This document shows positions 22,571 to 57,536 of a DNA stretch of 64,000 bases, in pieces (position 1 is the first letter of the stretch; the number at the start of each line of letters is the position of its first letter). The stretch lies in NCBI GenBank assembly GCA_914767715.1, contig OU612070.1, positions 18,218,025-18,282,024 on the forward strand. The letters run 5' to 3'. The notes under the pieces are model-generated. The model searched no databases. It was not told where the DNA came from and saw only the letters and a program-made list of their open reading frames with translations. The translations under genes were made by a program, and so were the position numbers. This DNA is from Membranipora membranacea (Eukaryota; Bryozoa; Gymnolaemata; Cheilostomatida; Membraniporidae).

Positions 22571-22591
22571 GTTAGTACACATTTCAATTAC

Positions 22592-27544: not shown

Positions 27545-28318
27545 TTCTTTTTGGTCGGAACTCAACTGGATGTCTACTTAGGTATGCCTACAGATTTTTA
27601 TGGTAATCCGTCCCTGTGATGGCGCATTTTTACACATGAATATATATACAAGCTTTACTTGACTTAAAAAAGCAACTGAGTGATCCAATGAGTTTCAGCG
27701 AAATGTTCTATGAGGAAAAATATAGGCCAACATCTTTGTTGCATTGTAAAGAGTAACAATTGTGTGCAGTGAGGTGTTGCTGTTGGGGACTTTTCTTTTC
27801 CCCCAGTGTAGTGTATAATCATTGGCCTTGCTAATAATGGTGATGGTAATCTTAAGGAAGAAATTGCACTAGGGGGAAATGACTTTCCCTAAATTTGTAA
27901 ATTTTCGATTTATATGTTAATGCTAGTCTCCTTTATAGAAAGTGATTTTTATGATGACCATATTAAATTCAAACCCCGCCCTTTTTCCACTACATTACAT
28001 AGATCATCTATCTGTGGGCCAAATATCGATCAATCTGGTTGACACATGCGTGTATGTAGCAGTGGCAAATCCAATGCCTTGTTATGAATTAAGTAGTGAT
28101 GGAATAATACAGTGATTATGAGTACATGGCAGGACCACCCACAATGACAAGCTTTTAACATCAAACTCTGAAATGACACCTCCCGGGTGGCAAAAATAAG
28201 CAGTTTGCTTGTGATCATAAAAACAGTCCGTTCTATTTGTTTACATGCCAATGCTAAAGATAGTTCGATTGAGATGTTATTCATATTGTGTTATTCTTAT
28301 TGAGATTGACATGTTATT
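27545..28318. other. non-coding flank of the mobile-element array
   Basis: No gene or repeat recognised. It contains upstream sequence of the TRIM-like gene and the last unique DNA before the element array, whose left junction is ATGTTATT|AGGAATAC at 28318/28319. Confidence 0.5.
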
Positions 28319-31300
28319 AGGAATACAACAAAGTTGTATTTCTTTTGTTTTGGTTGGATTTATTATTATTAGGAATACAACAAAGTTGTATTTCTTTTGT
28401 TTTGGTTGGATTTATTATTATTATTATTATTAGGAATACAACAAAGTTGTATTCCTTTTACTTTAGTAGGGTTTATTATTATTATTCTTGCAACACTTTT
28501 TAGCCTTCTATAAGTCAAGAACTACCAGGCAGAATTCGATGCAACTTCGTCACAACATAGTTCCATATGTCTAGATGAGAAATTACTAAATGAGTTTTTG
28601 AATTGTTATGTAACTCTCGCTTATTAGACTAATTAGTGGAGGACGTTTTGACCTTTATATTGATCAAATCTTGAGAACGAATCATGCGATTGAGTTAAAA
28701 TTTGGGATTTGGGGGTTTTGGCATATACCGAATCTTATGATATCATCAATTTTAAGGTCACATGACACGAAATCCAAAATGGCCGCCATAGACAGTAAAC
28801 TGCTGCCGATTAACAGTTCTTATCATGCGATTGAGTTAAATCTTGGGATATGGGGGTTATGACATAAACCGAATCTTATGATATCATCAATTTTAATGTC
28901 GACGACCCGAAATCCAATATGGCCGCCATAGAGAGTTAATTGCTGCCGATTAGCAGTTCTTATAATGCGATTGAGTTAAAACTTGGGATAAGGGGGCAAT
29001 GACACATACCGAATCTTATGACATCGTCATTTTTGATATCATGTGACCCGAATCCAATATGGCCACCATTAACAGGAAGTGGCTGCCGATTAACAGTTCT
29101 TATCATGCGATTGAGTTAAAACTTGGAATTTGGGGGTTATGACATATGCCGAATCTGATGACATCATCAATTTTAATGTCACATGACCCGAAATCCAATA
29201 TGGCCGCCATAGACAGTTAATCGCTGCCGATTAGCAGTTCTCATCATGCGATTGAGTTGAGACTTGGGATAAGGGGGTTATGGCATATACCGAGTCTTAT
29301 GACATCATCAATTATGATGTCATATGACCTCGATATTCAAATCTATCGGTTGTATTCCTTTATATTTGCTTGCAAATATGTTTACCGTTTCTAGTTATTA
29401 TTATTTTTGCAACACTTTTGTCGCATCTATAAGTCAAGAACTACCAGGCAGAATTGGATGGAACTTTGTCATAAGATAGTTCCATATGTCTAGATGAGAA
29501 ATTGCAAAATGGAATTTTGAAATGTTATGTAATACTTGCTAATTACACTAATGAGTGAAGGAGGTTTTGCCTTTTTTATCTTTTTTACCCAATTTCATTC
29601 TGCTATATGTCAAGAACTACTTGGCAGAATTCGATGATATATGGTCACAACATAGTCCCATATGTCAAGGTGAGAAAGTGCAAAACGAAATTTTGAAATG
29701 TTATGTAATATTTGCTAATTACACTAATTAGTGGAGGATGTTTTTTCGATTTTCTTTTGGTGATATCTTGAGAACAAATCATGCGATTGAGTTGAAACTT
29801 AGGATATGGAGGTTATGGCATATACAGAATCTTATGAAATCATCAATTTCAATGTCACATGACCCGATATACAAAATGGCCGCCATAAACAGGAAGTGGC
29901 TGCCGATTAACAGTTCTTATCATGCGATTGAGTGTAAACTTGGGATTTGGGGGTTATGACATACACCGAATCTTATGACATCATCGATTTTGATGTCACA
30001 TGACCCGAAATCCAATATGGCCGCCATAGAGAGTTAATTGCTGCCGATTAGCAGTTCTCATCATGCGATTGAGTTGAGACTTGGGATAAGGGGGTTTCGG
30101 CATATACCGAGTCTTATGACATCATCAATTATGATGTCACATGACCTCGATATTCAAATACATTGGTTGTATTCCTTTATATTTGCTTGCAAATATGTTT
30201 ACCGTTTCTAGTTATTATTAGGAATACAACAAAGTTGTATTTCTTTTGTTTTGGTTGGATTTATTAGTCATACAACTTTAAGTTGTATGACTTTTGTTTT
30301 AGTTGAGTTTATTATTAGTCATACAACTTTTAGTTGTATGACTTTTGTTTTAGTTGAGTTTATTATTATTTTTCTTGCAACACTTTTACAGCCATTTTTA
30401 GCCTTTTATAAGTCAAGAACTACCAGACACAATTTGATGAAACTTATTTACAACATACCTTCATGTGTCTAGATGAAAAATTTCAATTTGAATTTTTGAA
30501 ATGTTATGTAATATTTGCTAATTACAGTAATTAGTGGAGGACGTTTTGACCTTTATATTGATCATATCTTGAGAACGAATCATGCGATTGAGTTAAAACT
30601 TGGGATATGGGGGTTATGACATATACCGAATCTTATGACATCATCAATTTTTATGTCACATGACCTGATATACAAAATGGCCGCCATAAACAGGAAATGG
30701 CTGCCGATTAACAGTTCTTAACATGCGATTGAGTTAAAACTTGGGATTTGGGGGTTTTGACCTATACCGAATCTTATGACATCATCAATTTCAATGTTAC
30801 ATGACCCGATATCCAAAATGGCCGCCATAAACAGGAAGTGGCTGCCGATTAACAGTTCTTATCATGCGATTGAGTTAAAACTTGGGATTTGTAGGTTTTG
30901 ACTTATATCGAATCTTATGACATCATCAATTTTCATGTCACATGACCCGATTTACAAAATGGCTGCCGTAAACAGGAAGTGGGTGCCGATTAACAGTTCT
31001 TATCATGCGATGGAGTTGAAACTTGGGATTTGGGGGTCATGACATGTGCCGAATTTGATGACATCATCGAACTTGATGTCACATGACCTTGAAAATCAAT
31101 ATGGTCGGTTGTATGACTTCATATTTGCTCGCAAATATTATTACCGTTTCTAGTTATTATTATTTTTCTTGCAACACTTTTTTAGCCTTTAATAACTCAA
31201 GAACTGCCTGGCACAATTTGATGAAACTTGGTGACAACATAGCTTCATATGTTTAGATGAAAAATTTCAATTTCAATTTTTGACGTATTATGTAATATTA

Positions 31301-31935
31301 GCTAATTAGACTAATTAACAACCGAGGGTCCGAATATGTAAAATGGAGATATCTTGAGAACGATTCATGTTAGAACCAGGTAAACTGGCACACAGGGGTT
31401 TGTTAGTATGCCCGATCGCATAGTGACATCGAATATTGTGTCAAATGACCTTGAGATTCAAAATGGCCGCCATGAACAGGAAGTGACTGCCGATTATCAG
31501 TTCTTATCATGCGATTGAGTTAATGTTTGGGATTTGGAGGTTATGACACATACCGAATCTTATGACATCATCAATTTCAATGTCACATGACCCGATATCC
31601 AATATGGCTGCCGTAAACAGGAAGTGGCTGCCGATTAACAGTTCTTAACATGCAATTGAGCTAAAACTTGGGATTTGGGGGTTATGACATATACCGAATC
31701 TTATGACATCATCAATTATAATGTCACATGACCCGATATCCAAAATGGCTGCCATAAACAGGAAGTGGCTGCCGATTTACAGTTCTTACCGTGCGACTGG
31801 GTTAAAACTTGGGATGTGGGGGTTTTGACATATGCCGAATCCGATGACATCATCGATGTTGATGTCACATGACCTTGACAACCAATATTTTCGGTTGTAT
31901 GACTTCATATTTGCTTGCAAATATTACCGTTTCTA

Positions 31936-31971
<36 letters not shown>

Positions 31972-34028
31972 TTTGCAACACTTTTGTCGCATCTATAAGT
32001 CAAGAACTACCAGGCAGAATTGGATGGAACTTTGTCATAAGATAGTTCCATATGTCTAGATGAGAAATTACTAAATGAGTTTTTGAATCGTTATGTAATA
32101 CTTGCTAATTACACTAATTAGTGAAGGAGGTTTTGCCTTTTTTAACGTTTTTACCCAATTTCATTCTGCTATATGTCAAGAACTACTTCGCAGAATTCGA
32201 TGATATATGGTCACAACATAGTCCCATATGTCAAGATGAGAAATTGCGAAACAAAATTTTGAAATGTTATGTAATATTTGCTAATTACACTAATTAGTGG
32301 AGGATGTTTTTTCGATTTTCTTTTGGTGATATCTTGAGAACAAATCATGCGATTGAGTTGAAATTTAGGATACAGAGGTTATGGCATATACCGAATCTTA
32401 TGACATCGTCAATTTTAATGTCACATGACCCGATAGCCAAAATGGCCGCCAAAAACAGGAAGTGGCTGCCGATTAACAGTTCTATACATGCGATTGAGTT
32501 AAAACTTGGGATTTGGGGGTTTTGACCTATACGGAATCTTATGACATCATCAATTTCAATGTCACAGGACCCGATATCCAAAATGGCCGCCATAAACAGG
32601 AAGTGGCTGCCGATTAACAGTTCATTTCATGCTTTTGAGTTAAAACTTGGGATTTGGGGGTTTTGACCCATACCGAATCTTATGACTTCATCAATTTTAA
32701 GGTCACATGACCCGAAATCCAATATGGCCGTCATAGACAGTTAATTGCTGCCGATTAGCAGTTCTCATCATGCGATTGAGTTGAGACTTGGGATAAGGGG
32801 GTTTTGGCATATACCGAGTCTTATGACGTCATCAATTATGATGTCACATGACCTTGATATTCAAATCTATCGGTTGTATTCCTTTATATTTGCTTGCAAA
32901 TATTTTTACCGTTTCTAGTTATTATTATTATTATTATTATTTTTGCAACACTTTTGTCGCATCTATAAGTCAAGAACTACCAGGCAGAATTGGATGGAAC
33001 TTTGTCATAAGATAGTTCCATATGTCTAGATGAGAAATTACTAAATGAGTTTTTGAATCGTTATGTAATACTTGCTAATTACACTAATTAGTGAAGGAGG
33101 TTTTGCCTTTTTTAACGTTTTTACCCAATTTCATTCTGCTATATGTCAAGAACTACTCGGCAGAATTTGATGATATATGGTCACAACATAGTCCCATATG
33201 TCAAGATGAGAAATTGCAAAACGAAATTTTGAAATGTTATGTAATATTTGATAATCACACTAATTAGTGGAGGATGTTTTAACGATTTTCTTTTGGTGAT
33301 ATCTTGAGAACAATTCATGCGATTGAGTTGAAACTTAGGTTATAGAGGTTATGGCATATACCGAATCTTATGACATCGTCAATTTTAATGTCACATGACC
33401 CGATAGCCAAAATGGCCGCCAAAAACAGAAAATGGCTGCCGATTAACAGTTCTTAACATGCGATTGAGTTAAAACTTGGGATTTGGGGGTTTTGACTTAT
33501 ACCGAATCTTATGACATCATCAATTTCAATGTCACATGACCCGATATCCAAAATAGCCGCCATAAACAGGAAGTGGCTGCCGATTAACAGTTTTTATCAT
33601 GCTTTTGAGTTAAAACTTGGGATTTGGGGGTTTTGACCTATACCGAATCTTATGACTTCATCAATTTTAAGGTCACATGACCCGAAATCCAAAATGGCCG
33701 CCATAAACAGTAAACTGCTGCCGATTAACAGTTCTCATCATGCGATTGAGTCAAAACTTGGGATATGGGGGTTTGGCATATACCGAATCTTATGACATCA
33801 TCAATTTCAACGTCACATGACCCGAAATCCAAAATGGCCGCCATAGACAGTAAACTGCTGCCGATTATCAGTTCTCATCATGCGATTGAGTCAAAACTTG
33901 GGATATGGGGGTTTTGGCATATACCGAATCTTATGACATCATCAATTATGATGTCACATGACCTTGATATTCAAATCTATCGGTTGTATTCCTTTATATT
34001 TGCTTGCAAATATTTTTACCGTTTCTAG
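28319..34028 (+). mobile_element. nested cluster 1, fully balanced
   Basis: Heads a at 28319, 28371 and 28432; body 28490 to tail a ending 29394; body 29409 to tail a 30211; head a 30220, heads b 30266 and 30317; body 30377 to tail b 31153; body 31171 to tail b 31936; body 31975 to tail a 32918; body 32945 to tail a 34028. As brackets: a a a /a /a a b b /b /b /a /a. Every tail closes the most recent open head of its own class. The inner cluster 30220-32918 is a class a element containing two class b elements, one inside the other. Confidence 0.85.
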
Positions 34029-35239
34029 TTATTATTATTTTTGCAACACTTTTGTCGCATCTATAAGTCAAGAACTACCAGGCAGAATTTGATGGAACTT
34101 TGTCATAAGATAGTTCCATATGTCTAGATGAGAAATTACTAAATGAGTTTTTCAATCGTTATGTAATACTTGCTAATTACATTAATTAGTGAAGGAGGTT
34201 TTGCCTTTTTTAACGTTTTTACCCAATTTCATTCTGCTATATGTCAAGAACTACTTGGCAGAATTCGATGATATATGGTCACAACATAGTCCCATATGTC
34301 AAGATGATAAATTGCAAAACAAAATTTTGAAATGTTATGTAATGTTTGCTAATTACACTAATTAGTGGAGGATGTTTTTTCGATTTTCTTTTGGTGATAT
34401 CTTGAGAACAAATCATGCGATTGAGTTGAAACTTAGGATACAGAGGTTATGGCATATACCGAATCTTTTGACATCGTCAATTTTAATGTCACATGACCCG
34501 ATAGCCAAAATGGCCGCCAAAAACAGGAAATGGCTGCCGATTAACAGTTCTTAACATGCGATTGAGTTAATACTTGGGATTTGGGGGTTTTGACTTATAC
34601 CGAATTTTATGACATCATCAATTTTTATGTCACATGACCCGATATACAAAACGGCCGCCATAAACAGTGAACTGCTGCCAATTAACAGGTCTTATCATGC
34701 GATTGAGTTAAAACTTGGGATTTGGGGGTTTTGACCTATACCGAATCTTATCACATCATCAATTTCAATTTCACATGACCCGATATCCAAAATGGCCACC
34801 ATAAACAGGAAGTGGCTGGCGATAAACAGTTCTTAACATGCTATTGAGTTTAAACTTGGGATTTGGGGGTTTTGACCTATACCGAATCTTATGACATCAT
34901 CAATTTCAATGTCACATGACCTGATATCCAAAATGGCCGCCATAAACAGGAAGTGGCTGCCGATTAGCAGTTCTCATCATGCGATTGAGTTGAGACTTGG
35001 TATAAGGGGGTTTCGGCATATACCGAGTCTTATGACATCATCAATTATGATGTCACATGACCTCGATATTCAAATACATTGGTTGTATTCCTTTATATTT
35101 GCTTGCAAATATGTTTACCGTTTCTAGTTATTATTAGGAATACAACAAAGTTGTATTTCTTTTGTTTTAGTTGAGTTTATTATTATTATTATTATTATTA
35201 GGAATACAACAAAGTTGTATTTCTTTTGTTTTAGTTGAG

Positions 35240-35279
<40 letters not shown>

Positions 35280-37236
35280 GTCTCGCAACACTTTTTGTAG
35301 CTTTTATAAGTCAAGAACAACCGGGCAGAATTTGCTGTTACTTGGTCACAACATAGCTCCATATGTTTAGATGAGAAATTGCGAAATGAAATTTTAAAAT
35401 GTTACGTAATACTTGCTAATTACACTAATTAGTGATGGAGGTTTTGCCTTTTTTAACGTTTTTACCCAATTTCATTCGGCTATATGTTAAGAACTACTTG
35501 GCAGAATTCGATGATATATGGTCACAACATAGTCCCATATGTCAAGATGAGAAATTGCAAAACGAAATTTTGAAATGTTATGTAATATTTGCTAATTACA
35601 CCAATTAGTGGAGGATGTTTTTTCGATTTTCTTTTGGTGATATCTTGAGAACAAATCATCCGATTGAGTTGAAACTTAGGATACAGAGGTTATGGCATAT
35701 ACCGAATCTTATGACATCGTCAATTTTAATGTCACATGATCCGATATCCAAAATGGCCGCCATAAACAGGAAATGGCTGCCGATTAACAGTTCTTAACAT
35801 GCGATTGAGTTAAAACTTGGGATTTGGGGGTTTTGACTTATACCGAATCTTATGACATCATCAATTTCAATGTAACATGACCCAATATCCAAAATGGCCG
35901 CCATAAACAGGAAGTTGCTGCCGATTAACAGTTCTTATCAAGCTTTTGAGTTAAAACTCGGGATTTGGGGGTTTTAACCTATACCGAATCTTATGACTTC
36001 ATCAATTTTAAGGTCACATGACCCGAAATCCAAAATGGCCGCCATAGACAGTAAACTGCTGCCGATTAACAGTTCTCATCATGCGATTGAGTTGAGACTT
36101 GGGATAAGGGGCTTTTGGCATATACAGAGTTTCATTACACCATCACTTATGATGTCACTTGACCTTGATATTCAAAATTAATGGTTGTATTCCTTTATAT
36201 TTGCTTGCAAATATTTTTACCGTTTCTAGTTATTATTATTATTCGTCTCGCAACACTTTTTGTAGCTTTTATAAGTCAAGAACTACCGGGCAGAATTTGC
36301 TGTTACTTGGTCACAACATAGCTCCATATATTTAGATGAGAAATTGCGAAATGAAATTTTGAAATGTTATGTAATACTTGCTAATTACACTAATTAGTGA
36401 TGGAGGTTTTGCCTTTTTTAACGTTTTTACCCAATTTCATTCGGCTATATGTTAAGAACTACTTGGCAGAATTCGATGATATATGGTCACAACATAGTCC
36501 CATATGTCAAGATGAGAAATTGCAAAACGAAACTTTGAAATGTTATGTAATATTTGCTAATTACACTAATTAGTGGAGGACGTTTTTTCGATTTTCTTTT
36601 GGTGATATCTTGAGAACAAATCATGCGATTGAGTTGAAACTTAGGATACAGAGGTTATGGCATATACCAAATCTTATGACATTGTCAATTTTAATGTCAC
36701 ATGACCCGATATCCAAAATGGCCGCCAAAAACAGAAAATGGCTGCCGATTAACAGTTCTTAACATGCGATTGAGTTAAAACTTGGGAATTGGGTATTTTG
36801 GCATATACCCAATCTTATGACATCATCAATTTTAATGTCACATGACCCGATATCCAATATGGCCACCATAAACAGGAAGTGGCTGCCGATTAACAATTCT
36901 AATCATGCGATTGAGTTAAAACTTGGGAAATGGGGGTTTTGGCATATACCGAATCTTATGACATCATCATTTTTAATAACACATGACCCGAAATCCAATA
37001 TGGCCGCCATAGAGAGTTAATTGCTGCCGATTAGCAGATCTCATCATGCGATTGAGTTGAGACTTGGGATAAGGGGGTTTCGGCATATACCGAGTCTCAT
37101 TACATCATCACTTATGATGTCACTTGACCTCGATATTCAAAATTAATGGTTGTATTCCTTTATATTTGCATGCAAATATTTTTACCGTTTCTAGTTAGGA
37201 ATACAACAAAGTTGTATTTCTTTTGTTTTAGTTGAG

Positions 37237-37273
<37 letters not shown>

Positions 37274-40198
37274 GTCTCGCAACACTTTTTGTAGCTTTTA
37301 TAAGTCAAGAACAACCGGGCAGAATTTGCTGTTACTTGGTCACAACATAGCTCCATATGTTTAGATGAGAAATTGCGAAATGAAATTTTAAAATGTTACG
37401 TAATACTTGCTAATTACACTAATTAGTGATGGAGGTTTTGCCTTTTTTAACGTTTTTACCCAATTTCATTCGGCTATATGTTAAGAACTACTTGGCAGAA
37501 TTCGATGATATATGGTCACAACATAGTCCCATATGTCAAGATGAGAAATTGCAAAACGAAATTTTGAAATGTTATGTAATATTTGCTAATTACACCAATT
37601 AGTGGAGGATGTTTTTTCGATTTTCTTTTGGTGATATCTTGAGAACAAATCATCCGATTGAGTTGAAACTTAGGATACAGAGGTTATGGCATATACCGAA
37701 TCTTATGACATCGTCAATTTTAATGTCACATGATCCGATATCCAAAATGGCCGCCATAAACAGGAAATGGCTGCCGATTAACAGTTCTTAACATGCGATT
37801 GAGTTAAAACTTGGGATTTGGGGGTTTTGACTTATACCGAATCTTATGACATCATCAATTTCAATGTAACATGACCCAATATCCAAAATGGCCGCCATAA
37901 ACAGGAAGTTGCTGCCGATTAACAGTTCTTATCAAGCTTTTGAGTTAAAACTCGGGATTTGGGGGTTTTAACCTATACCGAATCTTATGACTTCATCAAT
38001 TTTAAGGTCACATGACCCGAAATCCAAAATGGCCGCCATAGACAGTAAACTGCTGCCGATTAACAGTTCTCATCATGCGATTGAGTTGAGACTTGGGATA
38101 AGGGGCTTTTGGCATATACAGAGTTTCATTACACCATCACTTATGATGTCACTTGACCTTGATATTCAAAATTAATGGTTGTATTCCTTTATATTTGCTT
38201 GCAAATATTTTTACCGTTTCTAGTTATTATTATTATTTTTGCAACACTTTTGTAGCTTCAATAAGTCAAGAACTACCAGGCAGAATTGGATGGAACTTTG
38301 TCATAAGATAGTTCCATATGTCTAGATGAGAAATTGCGAAATGAAATTTTAAAATGTTATGTAATACTTGCTAATTACACTAATTAGTGAAGGAGGATTT
38401 GCCTTTTTTAACGTTTTTACCCAATTTCATTCTGTTACATGTCAAGAACTACTTGGCACAATTCAATGATATATGGTCACAACATAGTCCTATATGTCAA
38501 GATGAGAAATTGCAAAACGAAATTTTGAAATGTTATATAATATTTGCTAATTACACTCATTAGTGGAGGATGTTTTTTCGATTTTCTTTTGGTGATATCT
38601 TGAGAACAAATCATGCGATTGAGTTGAAACTTAGGATACAGAGGTTATGTCATATACCAAATCTTATGACATCGTCAATTTTAATGTCACATGACCCGAT
38701 ATCCAAAATGGCCGCCAAAAACAGGAAATGGCTGCCGATTAACAGTTCTTAACATGCGATTGAGTTAAAACTTGGGATTTGGGGGTTTTGACTTATACCG
38801 AATATTATGACTTCATCAATTTTAAGGTCACATGACCCGAAATCAAAAATGGCCGCCATAGACAGTAAACTGCTGCCGATTAACAGTTCTCATCATGCGA
38901 TTGAGTTGAGACTTGGGAAATGGGGGTTTTGGCATATACCGAATCTTATGACATCATCATTTTTAATAACACATGACCCGAAATCCAATATGGCCGCCGT
39001 AGAGAGTTAATTGCTGCCGATTAGCAGTTCTCATCATGCGATTGAGTTGAGACTTGGGATAAGGGGGTTTCGGCCTATACCGAGTCTTATGACATCATCA
39101 ATTATGATGTCACATGACCTCGATAATCAAATCTATTGGTTGTATTCCTTTATATTTGCTTGCAAATATGTTTACCGTTTCTAGTTATCAGTCATACAAC
39201 TTTTAGTTGTATGACTCTTGTTTTAGTTGAGTTTATTATTATTATTCGTCTCGCAACACTTTTTGTAGCTTTTATAAGTCAAGAACTACCAGACAGAATT
39301 TGCTGTTACTTGGTCACAACATAGCTCCATATGTTTAGATGAGAAATTGCAAAATGAAATTTTAAAATGTTATGTCATACTTGCTAATTACATTAATTAG
39401 TGACGGAGGTTTTGCCTTTTTTAACGTTTTTACCCAATTTCATTCGGCTATATGTCAAGAACTACTTGGCAGAATTCGATGATATATGGTCACAACATAG
39501 TCCCATATGTCAAGATGAGAAATTGAAAAACGAAATTTTGAAATGTTATGTAATATTTGCTAATTACACTAATTAGTGGAGGATGTTTTTTCGATTTTCT
39601 TGTGGTGATATTTTGAGAACAAATCATGCGATTGAGTTGAAATTTAGGATATAGAGGTTATGGCCTATACCGAATCTTATGACATCGTCAATTTTAATGT
39701 CCCATGTCCCGTTATCCAAAAATGGCCGCCAAAAACAGGAAGTGGCTGCCGATTAACAGTTCTAAACATGCGATTGAGTTAAAACTTGGGATTTGGGGGT
39801 TATGGCATATACCGAATCTTATGACATTGTCAATTTTAATGTCACATGACCCGATATCCAAAATGGCCGCCATTAACAGGAAGTGGCTGCCGATTAACAG
39901 TTCTTATCATGCGATTGAGTTCAAACTTTGGATTTGGGGGTTATGACATGTGCCGAATTTGATGAAATCATCAATTTCAATGTCACATGACCAGATATAC
40001 AAAATGGTCGCCATAAACAGGAAGTGGGTGCCGATTAACAGTTCTTATCATGTGATTGAGTTAAAACTTTGGATTTGGGGGTTATGACATGTGCCGAATT
40101 TGATGACATCATCAAACTTGACGTCACATGACCTTGAAAATTTACATGGTCGGTTGTATGACTTCATATTTGCTCGCAAATATTATTACCGTTTCTAG
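34029..40198 (+). mobile_element. array segment 2
   Basis: Body 34043 to tail a 35127 (no head found for it); heads a 35136 and 35200; body 35285 to tail a 36229; body 36250 to tail a 37194; complete element with head 37197, body 37279, tail a 38223; body 38241 to tail a 39184 (no head); complete class b element with head 39190, body 39253, tail b 40198. The complete elements 35200-36229 and 37197-38223 are nearly identical (about 1.03 kb). Confidence 0.8.
38224..40198 (+). repeat. segmental duplication, copy 1 (partner 57537-59508)
   Basis: Four landmark positions spanning the block (38570, 38807, 39136, 39704) recur at a constant offset of 19,310 (57880, 58117, 58446, 59014) with identical translations. 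Both block edges coincide with CTAG element ends. The block holds one body-tail unit plus a complete class b element. Confidence 0.88.
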
Positions 40199-43100
40199 TT
40201 AGGAATACAACAAAGTTGTATTTCTTTTGTTTTAGTTGAGTTTATTATTATTAGGAATACAACAAAGTTGTATTCCTCTTGTTTTAGTAGGGTTTATTAT
40301 TATTATTGCAACACTTTTTGAGCTTCTATAAGTCAAGAACTACCAAGCAGAATTTGATGGAACTTTGTCATAATATAGTTCCATATGTCTAGCTAAGAAA
40401 TTACTAAATGAATTTTTGAATTGTTATGTAATATTCGCTAATTAGACTAATTAGTGGAGGACGTTTTGACCTTTATATTGATCATATCTTGAGAACGAAT
40501 CATGCGATTGAGTTAAAACTTGGGATATGGGGGTTATGACATATACCGAATCTTATGACATAATCAATTTTTATGTCACATGACCCGATATACAAAATGG
40601 CCGCCATTAACAGTTAACTGCTGCCAATTAACAGTTCTTATCATGCGATTGAGTTAAAACTCGGGATTTGGGGGTTTTGACCTATACCGAATTTATCACA
40701 TCATCAATTTCAATTTCACATGACCCGATATCCAAAATGGCCGCCATAAACAGGAAGTGGCTGGCGATAAACAGTTCTTAACATGCGATTGAGTTAAAAC
40801 TTGGGATATGGGGGTTATGACATATACCGAATCTTATGACATCATCAATTTTTATGTCACATGACCCGATATCCAAAATGGCCGCCATAAACAGTATATT
40901 GCTGCCAATTAGCAGTTCTTATAATGTGATTGAGTTAAAACTTGGGATATAGGGGCAATGACACATACCGAATCTTATGACATCATCATTTTTGATGTCA
41001 TGTGACCCGAATCCAATATGGCCACCATTTACAGGAAGTGGTTGCCGATTAACAGTTCTCATCACGCGATTGAGTTGAGACTTGGGATAAGGGGGTTTTG
41101 GCATATACCGAGTCTGGTGACATCATCAATTATGATATCACCTGACCTCGATATTCAAATCTATTGGTTGTATTCCTTTATATTTGCTAGCAAATATTTT
41201 TACCGTTTCTAGTTTTTATTATTATTATTGCAACACTTTTTGAGCTTCTATAAGTCAAGAACTACCAAGCAGAATTTGATGGAACTTTGTCATAATATAG
41301 TTCCATATGTCTAGCTAAGAAATTACAAAATAAATTTTTGAATTGTTATGTAATATTCGCTAATTAGACTAATTAGTGGAGGATGTTTTGACCTTTATAT
41401 TGATCATATCTTGAGAACGAATCATGCGATTGAGTTAAAACTTGGGATATGGGGGTTATGACATATACCGAATCTTATGACATAATCAATTTTTATGTCA
41501 CATGACCCGATATACAAAATGGCCGCCATAAACAGTAAACTGCTGCCAATTAACAGTTCTTATCATGCGATTGAGTTAAAACTCGGGATTTGGGGGTTTT
41601 GACCTATACCGAATCTTATGACATCATCAATTTTAATGTCACATGACCCGATATCCAAAATGGCCGCCATAAACAGGAAGAGGCTGCCGATTAACAGTTC
41701 TTATCATGCCATTGAGTTAAAACTTGGGATTTGGGGGTTATGACATATACCGAATCTTATGGCATCATCGATTTTGATGTCACATGACCCGAAATCCAAT
41801 ATGGCCGCCATAGAGAGTTAATTGCTGCCGATTAGCTGTTCTCATCATGCGATTGAGTTGAGACTTAAGATAAGGGGGTTTCGGCATATACCGAGTCCTA
41901 TGACATCATCAATTATGATGTCACATGACCTCGATATTCAAATATATTGGTTGTATTCCTTTATATTTATTATTATTATTGCAACACTTTTTGGGCTTTT
42001 ATAAGTCAAGAACTACCAAGCAGAATTGGATGTTACCTGGTCACAACATAGTTCCATATGTCTAGATGAGAAATTACTAAAGGAGTTTTTGAATTGTTAT
42101 GTAACACTCGCTAATTAGACTAATTAGTGACGGAGGTTTTGGGTATCGTTGCCGTTTTTATCAATCATACCTTGATTATACCAAAATTAAGTCTTCTATA
42201 ACTCAAGAACTACTTGGCAGATTCTAATGATACTTGGTCACAACATAGTCCTATAGGTCAAGATGAGAAAATGCTTGGACAATTTTTGAATTGTTATGCA
42301 ATTTATTTGCTAATTACACTAATTAGTGGAGGATGTTTTTCGTTTTTCTTTTGGTGATATCTTTAAAACAAATCATGCCACTGAGTTGAAACTTGGGATA
42401 TAAGGGTTTTGACTTATACCGAATCTTATGAAATCATAAATTTTCATGTCACATGACCCGATATACAAAATGGCCGCCATAAACAGTGAATTGCTGCCGA
42501 TTAACAGTTCTTATCATGCGATTGAGTTGAAACTTGGGATATAGGGGTTTTGACTTATACCGAATCTTATGACATCATCAATTTTCATGTCACATGACCC
42601 GATATCCAATATGGCCACCATAAACAGGAAGTGGCTGCCGATTAACAATTCTTGTCATGCGATTGAGTTAAAACTTGGGCTATGGGGGTTTTGGCATATA
42701 CCGAATCTTATGACATCATCATTTTAATAACACATGACCCGAAATCCAATATGGCCGCCATAGAGAGTTAATTGCTGCCGATTAGCAGTTCTCATCATGC
42801 GATTGAGTTGAGACTTAAGATAAGGGGGTTTCGGCATATACCGAGTCTTATGACATCATCAATTATGATGTCGCATGACCTCGATATTCAAATATATTGG
42901 TTGTATTCCTTTATATTTGCTTGCAAATATGTTTACCGTTTCTAGTTATTATTATTATTCGTCTCGCAACACTTTTTGTAGCTTTTATAAGTCAAGAACT
43001 ACCGGGCAGAGTTTGCTGTTACTTGGTCACAACATAGCTCCATATGTTTAGATGAGAAATTGCGAAATGAAATTTTAAAATGTTATGTAATACTTGCTAA

Positions 43101-45384
43101 TTACACTAATTAGTGAAGGAGGTTTTGCCTTTTTTAACGTTTTTACCCAATTTCATTCTGTTATATGTCAAGAACTACTTGGCAGAATTTGATGATATAT
43201 GGTCACAACATAGTCCCATATGTCAAGATGAGAAATTGCAAAACGAAATTTTGGAATGTTATGTAATATTTGCTAATTACACTAATTAGTGGAGGATGTT
43301 TTTTCGATTTTCTTTTGGTGATATCTTGAGAACAAATCATCCGATTGAGTTGAAACTTAGGATACAGAGGTTATGGCATATACCGGATCTTATGACATCG
43401 TCAATTTTAATGTCACATGACCCGATATCCAATATGGCCGCCAAAAACAGGAAATGGCTGCCGATTACCAGTTCTTAACACGCGATTGAGTTAAAACTTG
43501 GGATTTGGGGGTTATGCCATATACCGAATCTTATGACATCATCGATTTCGATGTCACATGACCCGATATCCAAAATGGCCGCCATAAACAGGGAGTGGCT
43601 GCCGATTGACAGTTCTTATCATGCGATTGAGTTGAAACTTAGGATACGGAGGTTATGGCATATACCGAATCTTATGAAATCATCAATTTTCATGTCACAT
43701 GACCCGATATACAAAATGGCCGCCATAAACAATGAATTGCTGCCGATTAACAGTTCTTATCATGCGATTGAGTTGAAACTTGGGATATGGGGGTTTTGAC
43801 TTATACCGAATCTTATGACATCATCAATTTTCATGTCACATGACCCGATATCCAATATGGCCACCATAAACAGGAAGTGGCTGCCGATTAACAATTCTTG
43901 TCATGCGATTGAGTTAAAACTTGGGATTTGGGGGTTATGACATATACCGAATCTTATGTCATCATCGATTTTGATGTCACATGACCCGAAATCCAATATG
44001 GCCGTCATAGACAGTTAATCGCTGCCGATTAGCTGTTCTCATCATGCGATTGAGTTGAGACTTAAGATAAGGGGGTTTCGGCATATACCGAGTCTTATGA
44101 CATCATCAATTATGATGTCACATGACCTCGATATTCAAATATATTGGTTGTATTCCTTTATATTTGCTTGCAAATATGTTTACCGTTTCTAGTTATTATT
44201 ATTATTATTATTATTTTTGCAACACTTTTGTCGCATCTATAAGTCAAGAACTACCAGGCAGAATTGGATGGAACTTTGTCATAAGATAGTTCCATATGTC
44301 TAGATGAGAAATTACTAAATGAGTTTTTGAATCGTTATGTAATACTTGCTAATTACACTAATTAGTGAAGGAGGTTTTGCCTTTTTTAACGTTTTTACCC
44401 AATTTCATTCTGCTATATGTCAAGAACTACTTGGCAGAATTCGATGATATATGGTCACAACATAGCCCCATATGTCAAGATAAGAAATTGCGAAACAAAA
44501 TTTTGAAATGTTATGTAATATTTGCTAATTACACTAATTAGTGGAGGATGTTTTTTCGATTTTCTTTTGGTGATATCTTGAGAACAAATCATGTGATTGA
44601 GTTAAAACTTGGGATATGGGGGTTATGACATATACCGAATCTTATGAAATCATCAATTTTTGTGTCACATGACATGATATACAAAATGGCCGCCATAAAC
44701 AGTAAACTGCTGCCAATTAACAGTTCTTATCATGTGATTGAGTTAAAACTTGGGATATAGGGGTTATGAGATATACCGAATCTTATGACATCATCAATTT
44801 TAAGGTCACATGACCCGAAATCCAAAATGGCCGTCCTAGACAGTAAACTGCTGCCGATTAACAGTTCTTATCATGCGATTGAGTCAAAACTTGGGATATG
44901 GGGGTTATGACCACACTGATCACGTGATATACTATTGCATGTATATCTCTGATCGATAGAGAGTGAATTAATTCACTTAGTAGTAGTACCATCACAAAGA
45001 ATTTGGTGTGACGACCCGTGTTCAATTTTATTAATTAGGGGTGGGTACATGTTAGGTACTGCTACTAAATTGACTCTAACGATCAGAGATACACATGTTA
45101 ATAGTGTAATCTCGATGTCAGTGTGGGTTATGACATATACCGAATCTTATGACTTCATCAATTTAAAGGTCACATGACCCGAAATCCAAAATGGCCGCCA
45201 TAGACAGTAAACTGCTGCCGATTAGCAGTTCTCATCATGCGATTGAGTTGAGACTTGGGATAAGGGGGTTTTGGCATATACCGAGTCTTATGACATCATC
45301 AATTATGATGTCACATGACCCGATATTCAAATCAATTGGTTGTATTCCTTTATATTTGCTTGCAAATATGTTTACCGTTTCTAG
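40199..45384 (+). mobile_element. array segment 3
   Basis: Heads a 40201 and 40253; body 40308 to tail a 41212; body 41230 to a truncated tail at about 41969, which runs from TTTATATTT straight into (ATT)n without hairpin or CTAG; bodies 41981, 42966 and 44219 to tails a ending 42945, 44192 and 45384, without heads. The last one is interrupted by a 214-bp inverted-repeat insertion at 44912-45125. Confidence 0.78.
44912..45125. mobile_element. MITE-like insertion with terminal inverted repeats and 9-bp target duplication
   Basis: Starts CACACTGATCACG and ends with TCAGTGTG. The reverse complement of the right end shares CACACTGA, ACTATT, CATG, TATCTCTGATCG and TAGAG with the left end in order, so the inverted repeats extend about 50 bp imperfectly. 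GGTTATGAC flanks it on both sides (44903-44911 and 45126-45134), and this sequence is part of the host core repeat, so the host copy proves a clean 9-bp duplication. No coding capacity. Superfamily unknown; a 9-bp duplication occurs in Mutator-like elements among others. Confidence 0.85.
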
Positions 45385-48300
45385 TTAGGAATACAACAAA
45401 GTTGTATTTCTTTTGTTTTGGTTGGATTTATTATTATTAGTCATACAACTTTAAGTTGTATGACTTTTGTTTTAGTTGAGTTTATTATTATTAGGAATAC
45501 AACAAAGTTGTATTCCTTTTACTTTAGTAGGGTTTATTAGGAATACAACAAAGTTGTATTTCTTTTGTTTTAGTAGGGTTTATTATTATTATTATTATTG
45601 CAACACTTTTTGAGCTTCTATAAGTCAAGAACTACCAGAGGCAATTTGATGAAACTTGTTTACAACATACCTTCATGTGTCTAGATGAAAAATTTCAATT
45701 TGAATTTTTGAATTGTTATGTAATATTCGCTAATTAGACTAATTAATGGAGGACGTTTTGACCTTTATATTGATCATATCTTGAGAACGAATCATGCGAT
45801 TGAGTTAAAACTTAGGATATGGGGGTTATGACATGTACCGAATCTTATGCCATCATCAATTTTTATGTCACATGACCCGATATACAAAATGGCCGCCATA
45901 AACAGGAAGTGGCTGCCGATTAACAGTTCTTATCATGCGATTGAGTTAAAACTTGGGATATGGGGGTAATGACATATACCGAATCTTATGACATCATCAA
46001 TTTTAATGCCACATGACCCGATATCCAAAATGGCCGCCATAAACAGGAAGTGGCTGCCGATTAACAGTTCTTATCATGCGATTGAGTTAAAACTTGGGAT
46101 ATGGGGGTAATGACATATACCGAATCTTATGACATCATCAATTTTAATGCCACATGACCCGAAATCCAATATGGCCGCCATAGAGAGTTAATTGCTTCCG
46201 ATTAGCAGTTCTCATCATGCGATTGAGTTGAGACTTGGGATAAGGGGGTTTCGGCATATACCGAGTCTTATGACATCATCAATTATGATGTCACATGACC
46301 TCGATATTCAAATACATTGGTTGTATTCCTTTATATTTGCTTGCAAATATGTTTACCGTTTCTAGTTATTTTTATTATTATTATTGCAACACTTTTTGAG
46401 CTTCTATAAGTCAAGAACTACCAGACAGAATTGGATGGAACTTTGTCATAACATAGTTCCATATGTCTAGCTAAGAAATTACAAAATGAATTTTTGAATT
46501 GTTATGTAACACTCGCTAATTGGACTAATTAGTGACGGAGGTTTTGGGTATCGTTGCCGTTTTTATCAATTATACCTTGATTATACCAAAATTAAGTCTT
46601 CTATAAGTCAAGAACTACTTGGCAGATTCTAATGATACTTGGTCACAACATAGTCCTATAGGTCACGATGAAAAAATGCTTGGACAATTTTTGAATTGTT
46701 ATGCAATTTATTTGCTAATTACGCTAATTAGTGGAGGATGTTTTTCATTTTTCTTTTGGTGATATCTTGAGAACAAATCATGCGATTGAGTTGAAACTTG
46801 GGATAAGGGGGTTTTGACTTATACCGAATCTTATGAGATCATCAATTTTTATGTCACATGACCCGATATACAAAATGGCCGCCATAAACAGTGAATTGCT
46901 GCCGATTAACAGTTTTTATCATGCGATTTAGTTAAAACTTGGGATATGGAGGTTTTGACATACACCGAATCTTATGACATCATCATTTTTGATGTCATGT
47001 GACCCGAATCCAATATGGCCACCATGAACAGGAAGTGGTTGCCGATTAACAGTTCTTATCAAGCAATTGAGTTAAAACTTGGGATATGGGGGTTTGGCAT
47101 ATACCGAATCCTTTGAGACCAACAATTATGCTGTCACGTGACCTCGATATTCGATATGATTGGTTGTATTCCTTCATATTTGCTTGCAAATATTATTTTG
47201 TTGATTAAAAAAATTACCGTTTCTAGTTATTATTATTCTTGCAACACTTTTTAGCCTTCTATAAGTCAAGAACTACCAGACACAATTTGATGAAACTTGT
47301 TCACAACATACATTCATGTGTGTAGATGAAAAATTTCAATTTGAATTTTTGAAATGTTATGTAATATTCGTTAATTAGACTAATTAGTGGGGGACGTTTT
47401 GACCGTTATATTGATCATATCTTGAGAACGAATCATGCGATTGAGTTAAAACTTGGGATATGGGGGTTATGACATATACCGAATCTTATGACATCATCAA
47501 TTTTTATGTCACATGACCTTATATACAAAATGGCCGCCATAAACAGTAAACTGCTGCCAATTAACAGTTCTTATCATGCGATTGAGTTAAAACTTGGGAT
47601 ATGGGGGTTATGACATATACCGAATCTTATGACATCATCAATTATAAGGTCACATGACCCGAAATCCAATATGGCCGCCATAAACAGTAAACTGCTGCCG
47701 ATTAACAGTTCTTATCATGCGATTGAGTTAAAACTTGGGACATGGGGGTTATGACATATACCGAATCTTATGACATCATCAATTTTAATGTCACATGACC
47801 CGAAATCCAAAATGGCCGCCAGAGATAGTAAACTGCTGCCGATTAACAGTTCTCATCATGCGATTGAGTTACAACTTGGGATATGGGGGTTATGACATAT
47901 ACCGAATCTTATGACATCATCAATTTTAAGGTCACATGACCCGCAATCCAAAATGGTCGCCATAGACAGTAAACTGCTGCCGATTAACAGTTCTCATCAT
48001 GCGATTGAGTTAAAACTTGGGAGATCGGGGTTTTGGCAGATACCGAGTCTTATGACATCATCAATTATGATGTCACATGACCTCGATATTCAAATATATT
48101 GGTTGTATTCCTTTATATTTGCTTGCAAATATGTTTACCGTTTCTAGTTATTATTATTTTTCTTGCAACACTTTTTTAGCCTTTTATAAGTCAAGAACTG
48201 CCTGGCACAATTTGATGAAACTTGGTGACAACATAGCTTCATATGTTTAGATGAAAAATTTCAATTTCAATTTTTGACATATTATGTAATATTAGCTAAT

Positions 48301-50136
48301 TAGACTAATTAACCACCGAGGGTCCGAATATGTAAAATGGAGATATCTTGAAAACGAATCATGTTAGAACCAGGTAAACTGGCACATGGGGGTTTGTTAG
48401 TATGCCCGATCGCATAGTGACATCGAATATTGTGTCACATGACCTTGACATTAATAATGGCCGCCATGAACAGGAAGTTGCTGCCGATTAACAGTTCTTA
48501 ACATACGATTGAGTTAAAACTTGGGATTTGGGGGTTATGACATATACTGAATCTTATGACATCATCAATTTTAATGTCACATGACCCGATATCCAAAATG
48601 GCTGCCATAAACAGGAAGTGGCTGCCGATATACAGTTCTTACCATGCGATTGGGTTGAAACTTAGGATATTGGGGTTATGGCATATACCGAATCTTATGA
48701 CATCGTCAATTTTAATGTCACATGACCCGATATCCAAAATGGCCGCCAAAAACAGGAAGTGACTGCCGATTAACAGTTCTAATCATGCGATTGAGTTAAA
48801 ACTTGGGATTTGGGAGTTTTGACTTATACCGAATCTTATGACATCATCAATTTTCATGTCGCATGACCCGATATACAAAATGGCCGCCATAAAGAGTGAA
48901 TTGCTGCCAATTGACAGATCTTATCATGCGATTGAGTTGAAACTTGGGATATGGGGGTTTTGACACACACCGAATCTTATGACATCATTAATTTTCATGT
49001 CACATGACCTTGAAAACCAATGTGGTCGGTTGTATGACTTCATATTTGCTCGCAAATATTATTACCGTTTCTAGTTATTATTATTATTGCAACACTTTTT
49101 AGCCTTTTATAAGTCAAGAACTACCAGACACAATTTGATGAAACTCGTTTACAACATACCTTCATGTGTCTAAATGAAAAATTTCAATTTGAATTTTTGA
49201 AATGTTATGTAATATATGCTAATTACAGTAATCAGTGAAGGACGTTTTGTGCCGTTTATTTGTGTTATCATGAGAACAAAACATGCGATTGAGTTAAAAC
49301 TTGGGATATTGGGGTTATGACATATACCGAATCTTAGGATATCATCAATTTTAATGTCACATGACCTGATATCCAAAATGGCCGCCATGAACAGGAAGTG
49401 GCTGCCGATTAATAGTTCTTAACATGCCATTGAGTTAAAACTTGGGATGTGGGGGTTATGACATATACCGAATCTTGGGCCATCATCAATTTTAATGTCA
49501 CATGACCCGATATCCAAAATGGCCGCCATAAAGAGGAAGTGGCTGCCGATTAACAGTTCTTATCATGCGATTGAGTTAAAACTTGGGATATGGGGGTTAT
49601 GACATATACCGAATCTTATGACATCATCAATTTTGATATCACATGACCCGAAATCCAATATGGCCGCCTTAGAGAGTTAATAGCTGCCGATTAACAGTTC
49701 TTATCATGCGATTGAGTTAAAACTTAGGATATAGGGGTTATGGCATATACCGAATCTTATGACATTGTCATTTTTAGTGTCACATGACCCGATATCCAAA
49801 ATGGCCGCCAAAAACAAGAAGTGGCTGCCGATTAACAGTTCTTATCATGCGATTGAGTTCAAACTTTGGATATGGGGGTTTTGACATATACCGAATCTTT
49901 TGACACCATTAATTTTAAGGTCACATGACCCGATATCCAAAATGGCCGCCATGAACAGGAAGTGGCTGTCGATTAACAGTTCTTATCATGCGATTGAGTT
50001 AAAACTTGGGATAAGGGGGTTTTCACATATACCGAATCTTATAATGTCATCAATTTTGATGTCACATGAACTTGAAAATCATTATGGTCGGTTGTATGAC
50101 TTCATATTTGCTGGCAAATATTTTTACCGTTTCTAG
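45385..50136 (+). mobile_element. array segment 4, mixed-class nesting
   Basis: Heads a 45387, b 45439, a 45493 and a 45539; body 45600 to tail a 46365; body 46386 to a variant tail a ending 47226 with about 20 extra bases between the hairpin and CTAG; body 47241 to tail a 48147; body 48165 to tail b 49074; body 49089 to tail b 50136. The order mostly fits nesting, but one tail a and one tail b have no head. The body from 48165 shares with that from 31171 a distinct block (AACCAGGTAAACTGGCACA) absent elsewhere, marking a class b subfamily. Confidence 0.78.
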
Positions 50137-53100: not shown

Positions 53101-54584
53101 AGGAAGTGGCTGCCGATTAACAGTTATTATCATGCTTTTGAGTTAAAACTTGGGATTTGGGGGTTTTTACCTATACCGAATCTTATGACTTCATCAATTT
53201 TAAGGTCACATGACCCGAAATCCAAAATGGCCGCCATAGACAGTAAACTGCTGCCGATTATCAGTTCTCATCATGCGATTGAGTCAAAACTTGGGATATG
53301 GGGGTTTTGGCATATACCGAATCTTATGACATCATCAATTTTAATGTCACATGACCCGAAAACCAAAATGGCCGCCATAGAGAGTTAATTGCTGCCGATT
53401 AGCAGTTCTCATCATACGATTGAGTTGAGACTTGGGATAAGGGGGTTTTGGCATATACCGAGTTTCATTACATCATCACTTATAATGTCACTTGACCTCG
53501 ATATTCAAAATTAATGGTTGTATTCCTTTATATTTGCTTGCAAATATTTTTACCGTTTCTAGTTATTATTATTATTATTATTATTATTATTCGTCTCGCA
53601 ACACTTTTTGTCGCTTCTATAAGTCAAGAACTACCGGGCAGAATTTGCTGTTACTTGGTCACAACATAGCTCCATATGTTTAGATGAGAAATTGCGAAAT
53701 GAAATTTTAAAATGTTATGTAATACTTGCTAATTACACTAATTAGTGAAGGAGGATTTGCCTTTTTTAACGTTTTTACCCAATTTCATTCTGTTATATGT
53801 CAAGAACTACTTGGCAGAATTCGATGATATATGGTCACAACATAGTCCCATATGTCAAGATGAGAAATTGCAAAACGAAATTTTGAAATGTTATGTAATA
53901 TTTGCTAATTACACTAATTAGTGGAGGATGTTTTTTCGATTTTCTTTTGGTGATATCTTGAGAACAAATCATGCGATTGAGTTGAAACTTAGGATACAGA
54001 GGTTATGGCATATACCGATTCTTATGACATCGTCAATTTTAATGTCACATGATCCGATATACAAAATGGCCGCCATAAACAGGAAGTGGCTGCCGATTAA
54101 CAGTTCTTATCATGCGATTGAGTTAAAACTTGGGATATTGGGGTTATGACATATACCGAATCTTATGCCATCATCAATTTTAATGTCACATGATCCGATA
54201 TACAAAATGGCCGCCATAAACAGGAAGTGGCTGCCGATTAACAGTTCTTATCATGCGATTGAGTTAAAACTTGGGATATGGGGGTAATGACATATACCGA
54301 ATCTTATGACGTCATCAATTCTTATGTCACATGACCCGATATACAAAATGGCCGCCATAAACAGGAAGTGGCTTCCGATTAACAGTTCTTAACATGCGAT
54401 TGAGTTAAAACTTGGGATTTGGGGGTTATGACATATACCGAATCTTATGACATCATCGATTTTAATGTCACATGACCTCGATATTCAAATCTATTGGTTG
54501 TATTCCTTTATATTTGCTTGCAAATATGTTTACCGTTTCTAGTTAGGAATACAACAAAGTTGTATTTCTTTTGTTTTAGTTGAG

Positions 54585-54624
<40 letters not shown>

Positions 54625-56550: not shown

Positions 56551-56690
56551 TTAGGAATACAACAAAGTTGTATTCCTTTTACTTTAGTAGGGTTTATTAT
56601 TAGGAATACAACAAAGTTGTATTCCTTTTGTTTTAGTAGGGTTTATTATTAGGAATACAACAAAGTTGTATTTCTTTTGTTTTAGTTGAG

Positions 56691-56727
<37 letters not shown>

Positions 56728-57536
56728 GTCTCGCAACACTTTTTGTAGCTTTTATAAGTCAAGAACAACCGGGCAGAATTTGCTGTTACTTGGTCACAAC
56801 ATAGCTCCATATGTTTAGATGAGAAATTGCGAAATGAAATTTTAAAATGTTACGTAATACTTGCTAATTACACTAATTAGTGATGGAGGTTTTGCCTTTT
56901 TTAACGTTTTTACCCAATTTCATTCGGCTATATGTTAAGAACTACTTGGCAGAATTCGATGATATATGGTCACAACATAGTCCCATATGTCAAGATGAGA
57001 AATTGCCAAACGAAATTTTGAAATGTTATGTAATATTTGCTAATTACACCAATTAGTGGAGGATGTTTTTTCGATTTTCTTTTGGTGATATCTTGAGAAC
57101 AAATCATCCGATTGAGTTGAAACTTAGGATACAGAGGTTATGGCATATACCGAATCTTATGACATCGTCAATTTTAATGTCACATGATCCGATATCCAAA
57201 ATGGCCGCCATAAACAGGAAATGGCTGCCGATTAACAGTTCTTAACATGCGATTGAGTTAAAACTCGGGATTTGGGGGTTTTGACCTATACCGAATCTTA
57301 TGACTTCATCAATTTTAAGGTCACATGACCCGAAATCCAAAATGGCCGCCATAGACAGTAAACTGCTGCCGATTAACAGTTCTCATCATGCGATTGAGTT
57401 GAGACTTGGGATAAGGGGCTTTTGGCATATACAGAGTTTCATTACACCATCACTTATGATGTCACTTGACCTTGATATTCAAAATTAATGGTTGTATTCC
57501 TTTATATTTGCTTGCAAATATTTTTACCGTTTCTAG

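What the first reader, a model, noticed from the sequence alone, without database searches (positions are those of the whole stretch)
28319..34028. Mobile-element modules obey balanced-parenthesis order: nested insertion into each other's microsatellites
Heads, bodies and tails do not alternate as in a simple tandem array. In this 5.7 kb the order is head a, a, a, tail a, a, head a, b, b, tail b, b, a, a: each tail closes the latest open head of the same class. Head and body types also agree across the nesting. Heads with GGTTGGATTT at 28319, 28371 and 30220 are predicted to own the bodies at 32945, 29409 and 31975, and all three begin TTTTTGCAAC; a head with GTAGGG at 28432 owns the ATTATTCTTGCAAC body at 28490. 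So each new copy entered the (ATT)n tract of an older one and split its head from its body. This is a self-targeting growth mechanism that mimics a satellite.
Basis: partly seen in the sequence, partly recalled or inferred. Interest (0 to 1): 0.88.

Follow-up and report, generated by a model that had tools for sequence, protein, structure and literature searches.

The report
Self-nesting Helitron-like array, partly scrambled

Summary
Parts and order at 28319-34028 are as described. They belong to an array of Helentron-like HINEs, window 28317 to 64873 (0.9 kb outside): 32 heads, 36 bodies, 35 tails, one strand. One element is head, (ATT)n, body, tail; single copies lie elsewhere, and 24 of 24 informative head-body neighbours in independent loci fit the window's pairing. 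Nesting is supported: a complete W-w element (52412-53564) splits an X-x element intact at 50140-51161, 6 mismatches. Elements outside arrays sit at A^TT. Of 71 internal heads 50 lie in ATT joints, 20 abut a tail, none lies in a body. (ATT)n offers A^TT on one strand only, which would explain the uniform orientation. The balanced-parenthesis law fails: depth falls to -7, as in shuffles; inside the finding 4 of 4 pairs agree, P 0.25. Strict pairing: 8 of 14 in this array (P 0.014), 8 of 14 in independent loci (P 0.44). ATT-bounded deletions and duplications probably broke the order. Helitron self-insertion is known; the element's own microsatellite as landing site is the newer part.

The parts
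28317..64000 (+). HINE array; continues outside the window to window coordinate 64873 (36,557 bases in all); outer flanks join as GACATGTTA^TTCTTATTG
28320..28364 (+). head W (class a), outermost left terminus
28433..29396 (+). intact Y1-y1 element in the finding
29407..30213 (+). w body plus tail a; strict bracket partner of head 28372
30318..31155 (+). intact class-b element (head, body, tail b)
31169..31938 (+). b body plus tail b; strict bracket partner of head 30267
31973..32920 (+). w body plus tail a; strict bracket partner of head 30221
32943..34030 (+). w body plus tail a; strict bracket partner of head 28320
34041..35129 (+). w body plus tail with no open head: first breach of the bracket rule
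35198..36235 (+). complete X-x element; 1,038 bases identical to 54543-55580 in other surroundings
50140..51161 (+). intact X-x element, the paralogous empty site
52363..52411 (+). head and ATT of the split X-x element
52412..53564 (+). complete W-w element lying in the ATT tract of the X-x element
53565..54544 (+). remaining ATT, x body and tail of the split element
40202..51161 (+). 10.96 kb block bounded by ATT and absent from the paralogous tract 59312-60110 (joined flanks 100% identical over 799 bases)
51127..53576 (+). segment duplicated at 59476-61925 (99.88%), ends at ATT tracts
37833..40201 (+). segment duplicated at 57146-59511 (99.4%)
41228..41965 (+). body whose tail is cut inside the 3' palindrome and fused to ATT (end approximate)

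Best explanation
The units are non-autonomous Helentron-type elements (HINEs) of about 0.8-1.9 kb. Each has a 5' palindromic subTIR head, (ATT)n, a body with 141-bp central repeats, and a tail with the matching 3' subTIR, a palindrome and CTAG. They insert at A^TT (shift-equivalent to a TT target). Their own ATT microsatellite offers a run of such sites on one strand only, so new copies land between an older head and body, or just behind an older tail, in the same orientation. This nests copies and gives a directional, satellite-like array. Shown: the anatomy, near-identical whole units in different contexts, one split element with an intact paralogue, the A^TT sites, and ATT-bounded rearrangements. 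Inferred: the rolling-circle machinery; insertion rather than loss as the direction; the (ATT)n acting as a landing pad rather than only as a recombination joint; collapse of tandem heads, composite transposition or ATT-ATT deletion as the causes of orphan heads and bodies.
For: Whole units in several contexts: X-x at 35201, 37198 and 54546 with no mismatch (0 to 3 gap columns), at 56652 with 2 mismatches and 141-144 gap columns. Split versus intact: 1,005 matches, 6 mismatches, 7 gap columns; 50126-53576 against 52349-61925 has 3,435 identical and 6 mismatched bases and two large inserts, 1,160 bases in the ATT tract and 4,966 at a tail/ATT joint. Head-body linkage in independent loci: 28 of 28, of which 24 are not circular; shuffles mean 8.9, maximum 19. 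Target: 14 of 14 heads that follow no module are preceded by A, and 11 of 11 flank pairs examined read A^TT, the whole window array included. Internal heads in 15 loci: 50 of 71 in ATT joints, 20 abutting a tail, 1 in a head, 0 in bodies, although in the window array 1,166 of 1,424 + strand A^TT sites lie outside tracts of two or more units; no minus-strand A^TT lies inside those tracts. In the window array 12 of 17 non-adjacent heads pair without crossing (null 9.3, P 0.02); by fine types 11 of 17 (null 7.8, P 0.001); with duplicated tracts removed 10 of 14 (null 6.7, P 0.002).
Against: Independent loci do not show the bracket signal (12 against 11.3 or 11.1 expected, P 0.43 and 0.30; strict 8 of 14, P 0.44). 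Rotating head types instead of shuffling them gives P 0.12 for the whole window, 0.07 without duplicated tracts (the floor of that control) and 0.19 outside the finding. Outside the finding the mirror control equals the forward count (6 and 6), so local clustering of types explains part of the signal. An ATT-ATT deletion would leave the same empty site as no insertion, so direction is not proved by the paralogue. Twenty heads abut a tail at G^TT, not A^TT, and 2 start TCA instead of TTA. Head counts include duplicated tracts. Only 15 loci were parsed, with 122 of the 222 tails not listed. No transposase was found: that search did not complete.
Confidence: 0.78

Rival explanations
1. The mixed order arises mainly from unequal exchange, deletion and duplication between ATT tracts that flank every module, not from nested insertion.
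For: Segments with ends at ATT are duplicated at 99.4-99.9% identity; a 10.96 kb and a 1.96 kb block are present or absent at ATT joints with 100% identical joined flanks; heads and bodies are unbalanced, and the number of unpaired modules in the window array (10) is no lower than in shuffled order (8.0).
Against: Random exchange would unlink head and body types, yet 24 of 24 informative neighbours in independent loci agree. A complete element occurs with exact termini in unlike contexts. Types in the window array are non-crossing above chance by label shuffles.
Confidence: 0.3
2. Head stacks and orphan bodies are mobilised composites: rolling-circle copying that starts at an outer head and stops at the first tail carries extra heads, and bypass of a tail carries extra bodies.
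For: Fusarium Helitrons with several 5' termini and one 3' terminus were explained in this way (PMC5148889, section 16 read). L049 has one head and two body-tail units between flanks that are no part of an array, at A^TT; its second unit is 99.75% identical to one in the C4 array.
Against: I made one comparison of a stack between loci only: X-W-w in C4 and in the window, 93.8% alike, so no recent shared composite there.
Confidence: 0.35
3. Tandem concatemers from circular intermediates or bypassed termination (head-to-tail multimers).
For: 20 of 85 heads abut a tail as CTAG|TTA. Precise head-to-tail junctions are known for Helraiser circles (PMC5876387, passages), and tandem Helitron arrays are ascribed to bypassed termination (PMC4067079, passage).
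Against: Neighbours at such junctions differ in class at 40188/40202 and 50126/50140, and the X-type pair 36248/37277 has bodies 98.1% alike, not identical.
Confidence: 0.12

Closest known systems
HINE / DINE-1 (non-autonomous Helentrons; PMC4067079)
   Same: Palindromic 5' subTIR near the end, matching 3' subTIR, 3' palindrome, microsatellite, central repeats, T-rich target, no target duplication; tandem clusters of Helitrons are mentioned (passages).
   Different: Array growth by insertion into the element's own microsatellite is not described in the passages I saw; the ends here are 5' TT and 3' CTAG at A^TT.
Cg_HINE elements of the Pacific oyster (PMC7492417)
   Same: Left flank with subTIR, complementary IR and microsatellite; satellite-like central repeats; right flank with subTIR and palindrome; elements repeated in tandem are mentioned in the introduction (passages).
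   Different: Mostly tetranucleotide microsatellites; the word 'nested' does not occur in the main text. Complex shuffled loci in oyster are described in a review (PMC12628747, passages).
Self-inserted FoHeli Helitrons of Fusarium (PMC5148889)
   Same: Nested or composite Helitrons and several 5' termini with one 3' terminus, ascribed to self-insertion (passages; section 16).
   Different: Few cases; no microsatellite target and no large oriented array in what I read.
Proto-Helentron of Phytophthora (PMC4067079)
   Same: 5' TT, 3' CTAG, insertion between A and T (passage).
   Different: Autonomous, about 14 kb; not reported as arrays in the passages seen.
Lepidopteran Helitron-like elements in (GAAA)n microsatellites (Coates 2010)
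   Same: Disrupts a microsatellite, judged from the title in a reference list; paper not read.
   Different: Not known from what I saw whether the microsatellite is the element's own.

Membership tests
HINE (non-autonomous Helentron) | 5' and 3' subTIRs of at least 11 identical bases | tested here: met
   AGGAATACAAC in class a and AGTCATACAAC in class b, each with its reverse complement in the tail (read)
HINE (non-autonomous Helentron) | palindromic 5' subTIR or adjoining IR | tested here: met
   hairpins in the 3 heads folded, z -3.3, -6.6, -5.7
HINE (non-autonomous Helentron) | palindrome close to the 3' end | tested here: met
   TTTGCTTGCAAA ends about 18 nt before the CTAG end; folding of the 2 tails tried is weak, z -2.0 and -1.7
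HINE (non-autonomous Helentron) | microsatellite and central tandem repeats | tested here: met
   (ATT)n; 3 to 7 141-bp units per body
HINE (non-autonomous Helentron) | TT or T-rich target, no target duplication | tested here: met
   A^TT in 11 of 11 flank pairs; because the element begins with TT, A^TT and AT^T are equivalent
HINE (non-autonomous Helentron) | no coding capacity | tested here: met
   5 stop-to-stop frames of 92-119 aa in the array at a 90 aa cut-off, translated 141-bp repeats by eye; not searched against families
HINE (non-autonomous Helentron) | autonomous Helentron partner (Rep/helicase/endonuclease) with the same ends | not tested
   genome search for PF14214 did not complete
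   depth to -7; strict 7 of 13 by fine types in the window, 16 of 28 pooled by coarse types
Classical satellite DNA | simple head-to-tail monomer array without element termini | tested here: not met
   complete elements with termini, and single copies at A^TT elsewhere

The most novel reading that the evidence does not exclude
The (ATT)n inside each element is a self-made landing pad. Because its unit is the element's own A^TT target and exists on one strand only, each insertion adds target and fixes orientation, so a Helentron family builds a directional satellite from one founding insertion. The type order of heads and bodies then keeps a partial record of insertion history.
Probability: 0.45. 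Interest if true: 0.68.

Novelty: new variant of a known kind. Interest (0 to 1): 0.5.

Why it matters
It gives a concrete, testable route from a dispersed rolling-circle element to an oriented satellite-like array: a target motif repeated inside the element. It also warns that bracket order is at best a partial fossil record, since the same tracts serve as recombination joints.

Tried and rejected
Balanced parentheses as a law: rejected. Simple tandem satellite: rejected, since single complete copies exist. Single copies in long (ATT)n: not found among the 11 flank pairs; by eye the joined sites hold at most (ATT)2. Circular concatemers as the main source: unlikely.

Exact-motif scans of viral contigs and genome contigs: 0 hits. 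Literature: 8 searches; from titles and abstract starts I saw no paper on an element nesting in its own microsatellite. That is no proof of absence, as most subscription papers are not held. The systematic flank-join search gave 224 matches from 329 joins. I saw the 60 printed; many are trivial because tails resemble each other, and I used three. The host animal was not identified.

Rows dropped or handled specially: modules after 57000 (duplicated tracts) were left out of the 'dedup' test. L061 (bodies only, heads side not fetched) is but left out. L001-L008 and L015-L044, fetched as by-products, were not parsed. Z-type heads were put in family Y because their neighbours are y-type, so 4 of the 28 pairs are circular; bodies that matched no other prefix were called Y. 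Head b2 with its x-type body (39191, copy 58501) was its own type; by body prefix alone 13 of 15 window neighbours agree. Type labels were made after looking at the window.
Full report
WHAT IS THERE. The window has exons matching Ribosomal_L7Ae (two frames; SECISBP2-like is my recall) and an NHL repeat (one frame) left of the array, so I take it for animal DNA (inference). It lies at C6:18218025-18282024 of an unnamed 339 Mb, 18-contig genome. From 28317 to 64873 (the last 0.9 kb outside the window) runs one array with 32 heads, 36 bodies and 35 tails, found on the + strand. Its outer flanks join as GACATGTTA^TTCTTATTG. A head is a 5' palindrome (class a AGGAATACAAC, class b AGTCATACAAC) with a short type-specific stretch (W GGTTGGA, X AGTTGAG, Y GTAGGG) and (ATT)n. 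A body starts near TTGCAACACTTT and holds 3 to 7 141-bp repeat units. A tail has the matching 3' subTIR, a palindrome and CTAG.

THE FINDING. The order at 28319-34028 is as stated. The balanced stretch ends at its chosen border: the next body, 34041, has no open head. Over the window depth reaches -7, like shuffles (mean -6.4; 69% of shuffles do as well or better). By fine types 7 of 13 non-adjacent strict pairs agree in the window (null 2.8, P 0.009); inside the finding 4 of 4 (P 0.25), outside 3 of 9 (P 0.33). With coarse types, strict pairs agree in 8 of 14 in the whole array (null 3.6, P 0.014), 8 of 14 in independent loci (null 7.4, P 0.44) and 16 of 28 pooled (null 11.1, P 0.024). Unpaired modules number 10 in the array (shuffled order 8.0, no better), 12 in independent loci (shuffled 18.7, P 0.026) and 22 pooled (26.7, P 0.24) (L061 left out).

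If orphans are allowed, the largest set of non-crossing, type-matched pairs is 12 of 17 non-adjacent heads in the array (null 9.3 or 9.2, P 0.022 or 0.017, mirror control 8). By fine types it is 11 of 17 in the window (null 7.8, P 0.001, mirror 6). With duplicated tracts removed it is 10 of 14 (head shuffle null 6.7, P 0.0016; body shuffle null 7.3, P 0.007; rotation P 0.07, the floor of that control; mirror 7; head stacks reversed 8). Outside the finding it is 6 of 10 against 4.2 (P 0.025 and 0.045, rotation 0.19), but the mirror control is also 6. In nine independent loci it is 12 of 19 against 11.3 or 11.1, not significant (P 0.43, 0.30; mirror 1). Two stacks read well by eye if extra bodies are skipped: heads W-b-Y1-Y3 at 45388-45540 are followed by y, (y), y1, b, (b), w; the C4 array has heads W-b-Y2-X, with another W left over, followed by x, y, b, w and then further bodies. 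Strict pairing fails at the first of these because of the extra bodies.

THE UNIT IS HEAD TO TAIL. Elements occur singly elsewhere: L050, L051, L052, L055 and both elements of L048; a minus-strand copy in L054 is complete too. Head-body neighbours in independent loci agree with the window map in 28 of 28 cases, 24 of them not circular; shuffles mean 8.9, maximum 19 of 28. In the window 15 of 15 neighbours fit the map that was built from them. The X-x element occurs at 35201, 37198 and 54546 with no mismatch (0 to 3 gap columns) and at 56652 with 2 mismatches and 141-144 gap columns, each with different neighbours on one or both sides. 35198-36235 and 54543-55580 are identical over 1,038 bases, and the match stops at both termini.

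NESTING. X(52363) and its body x(53596) are separated by a complete W-w element, 52412-53564. Joining the flanks gives the intact element 50140-51149 (tail included) with 1,005 matches, 6 mismatches and 7 gap columns in the ATT tract. A longer comparison (50126-53576 with 52349-61925) has 3,435 identical and 6 mismatched bases and two large inserts, 1,160 bases in the ATT tract and 4,966 at a tail/ATT joint. The direction (insertion, not loss) is inferred: ATT-to-ATT deletion would leave the same junction. That X-x is a real element does not rest on this pair: the window has four other X-x neighbours, and others lie elsewhere.

TARGET AND ORIENTATION. In the 15 loci parsed, 14 of 14 heads that follow no module (single copies or outer edges) are preceded by A, and 11 of 11 flank pairs examined read A^TT. 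Of 71 internal heads, 50 lie in ATT joints after a head or tail, 20 abut a tail as CTAG|TTA, 1 lies inside a head and 0 in a body (duplicates included; very short joints, two heads that start TCA and one tract with a TTT are counted among the 50). In the window array 1,424 A^TT sites lie on the + strand, 258 (18%) of them in tracts of two or more units; on the minus strand no A^TT lies inside such tracts. So the tract is a target in one orientation only. Genome-wide the tool counts 222 exact tails. Of the 100 listed, 91 fall in clusters of two or more within 6 kb, and from the strands listed, 13 of 14 such clusters are of one orientation. Exact class-a head motifs number 285.

WHY THE BRACKETS BREAK. 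Near-identical segments ending at ATT are duplicated (51127-53576 and 59476-61925, 99.88%; 37833-40201 and 57146-59511, 99.4%). Excising 40202-51161 gives flanks identical over 799 bases to 59312-60110, and excising 55581-57538 gives flanks identical over 799 bases to 38030-38828. The 10.96 kb block contains the W head (45388) whose non-crossing partner, body 51172, lies just outside it; in the other tract the same body (59521) has no W head of its own. A deletion there would explain that orphan (inference). Tandem heads of about 50 bases can collapse, and composite transposition can add heads or bodies (inference; prior art in PMC5148889). L049 has one head and two body-tail units between non-array flanks, and its second unit is 99.75% identical to one in the C4 array.

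COMPARISON. The HINE features that I could test are met, by the definitions in passages of PMC4067079 and PMC7492417; the fold of the 3' palindrome is weak. The ends TT...CTAG at A^T resemble the proto-Helentron (passage). Self-insertion of Helitrons is known (PMC5148889, section 16), as are shuffled Helitron/satellite loci in oyster (PMC12628747, passages). What seems new, within 8 literature searches of an incomplete library, is a large oriented array in which the element's own microsatellite is the main landing and recombination site. The transposase search did not complete, and assembly error could not be tested.

Noticed in passing
39191-40200 and its copy 58501-59510: Chimeric element: class-b head, x-type body start, class-b tail; the two copies are identical.
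   Followed up: partly
heads and tails of both classes, e.g. 40254, 30267, 31102-31155: Three-way covariation: both palindrome arms of the head and the 3' subTIR change together between classes (GGAAT/ATTCC/ATTCC versus GTCAT/ATGAC/ATGAC); W and X heads deviate by one base in the second arm (ATTTC).
   Followed up: partly
47180-47228 and L045 near 7180: A tail with about 20 extra bases between palindrome and CTAG, seen in the window array and in the C4 array.
   Followed up: no
21128-22579: 37-bp minisatellite, 39 copies, unit with a long internal palindrome around GATAGATCTATAG.
   Followed up: no
9878-10333 and 8453-8562: 17-bp (27 copies) and 12-bp (9 copies) minisatellites left of the L7Ae-matching exons.
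   Followed up: no
L054 (C3:1593001-1603000), reverse-strand coordinates 6597-7458: A complete minus-strand X-x element within an otherwise plus-strand group, at AA^TT, not in an ATT tract.
   Followed up: partly
L046 (C4 array, joined coordinate about 12750): A tail fused directly to the end of an X head (CTAGTTGAGTTTATT), as if by exchange at TAGTT.
   Followed up: no
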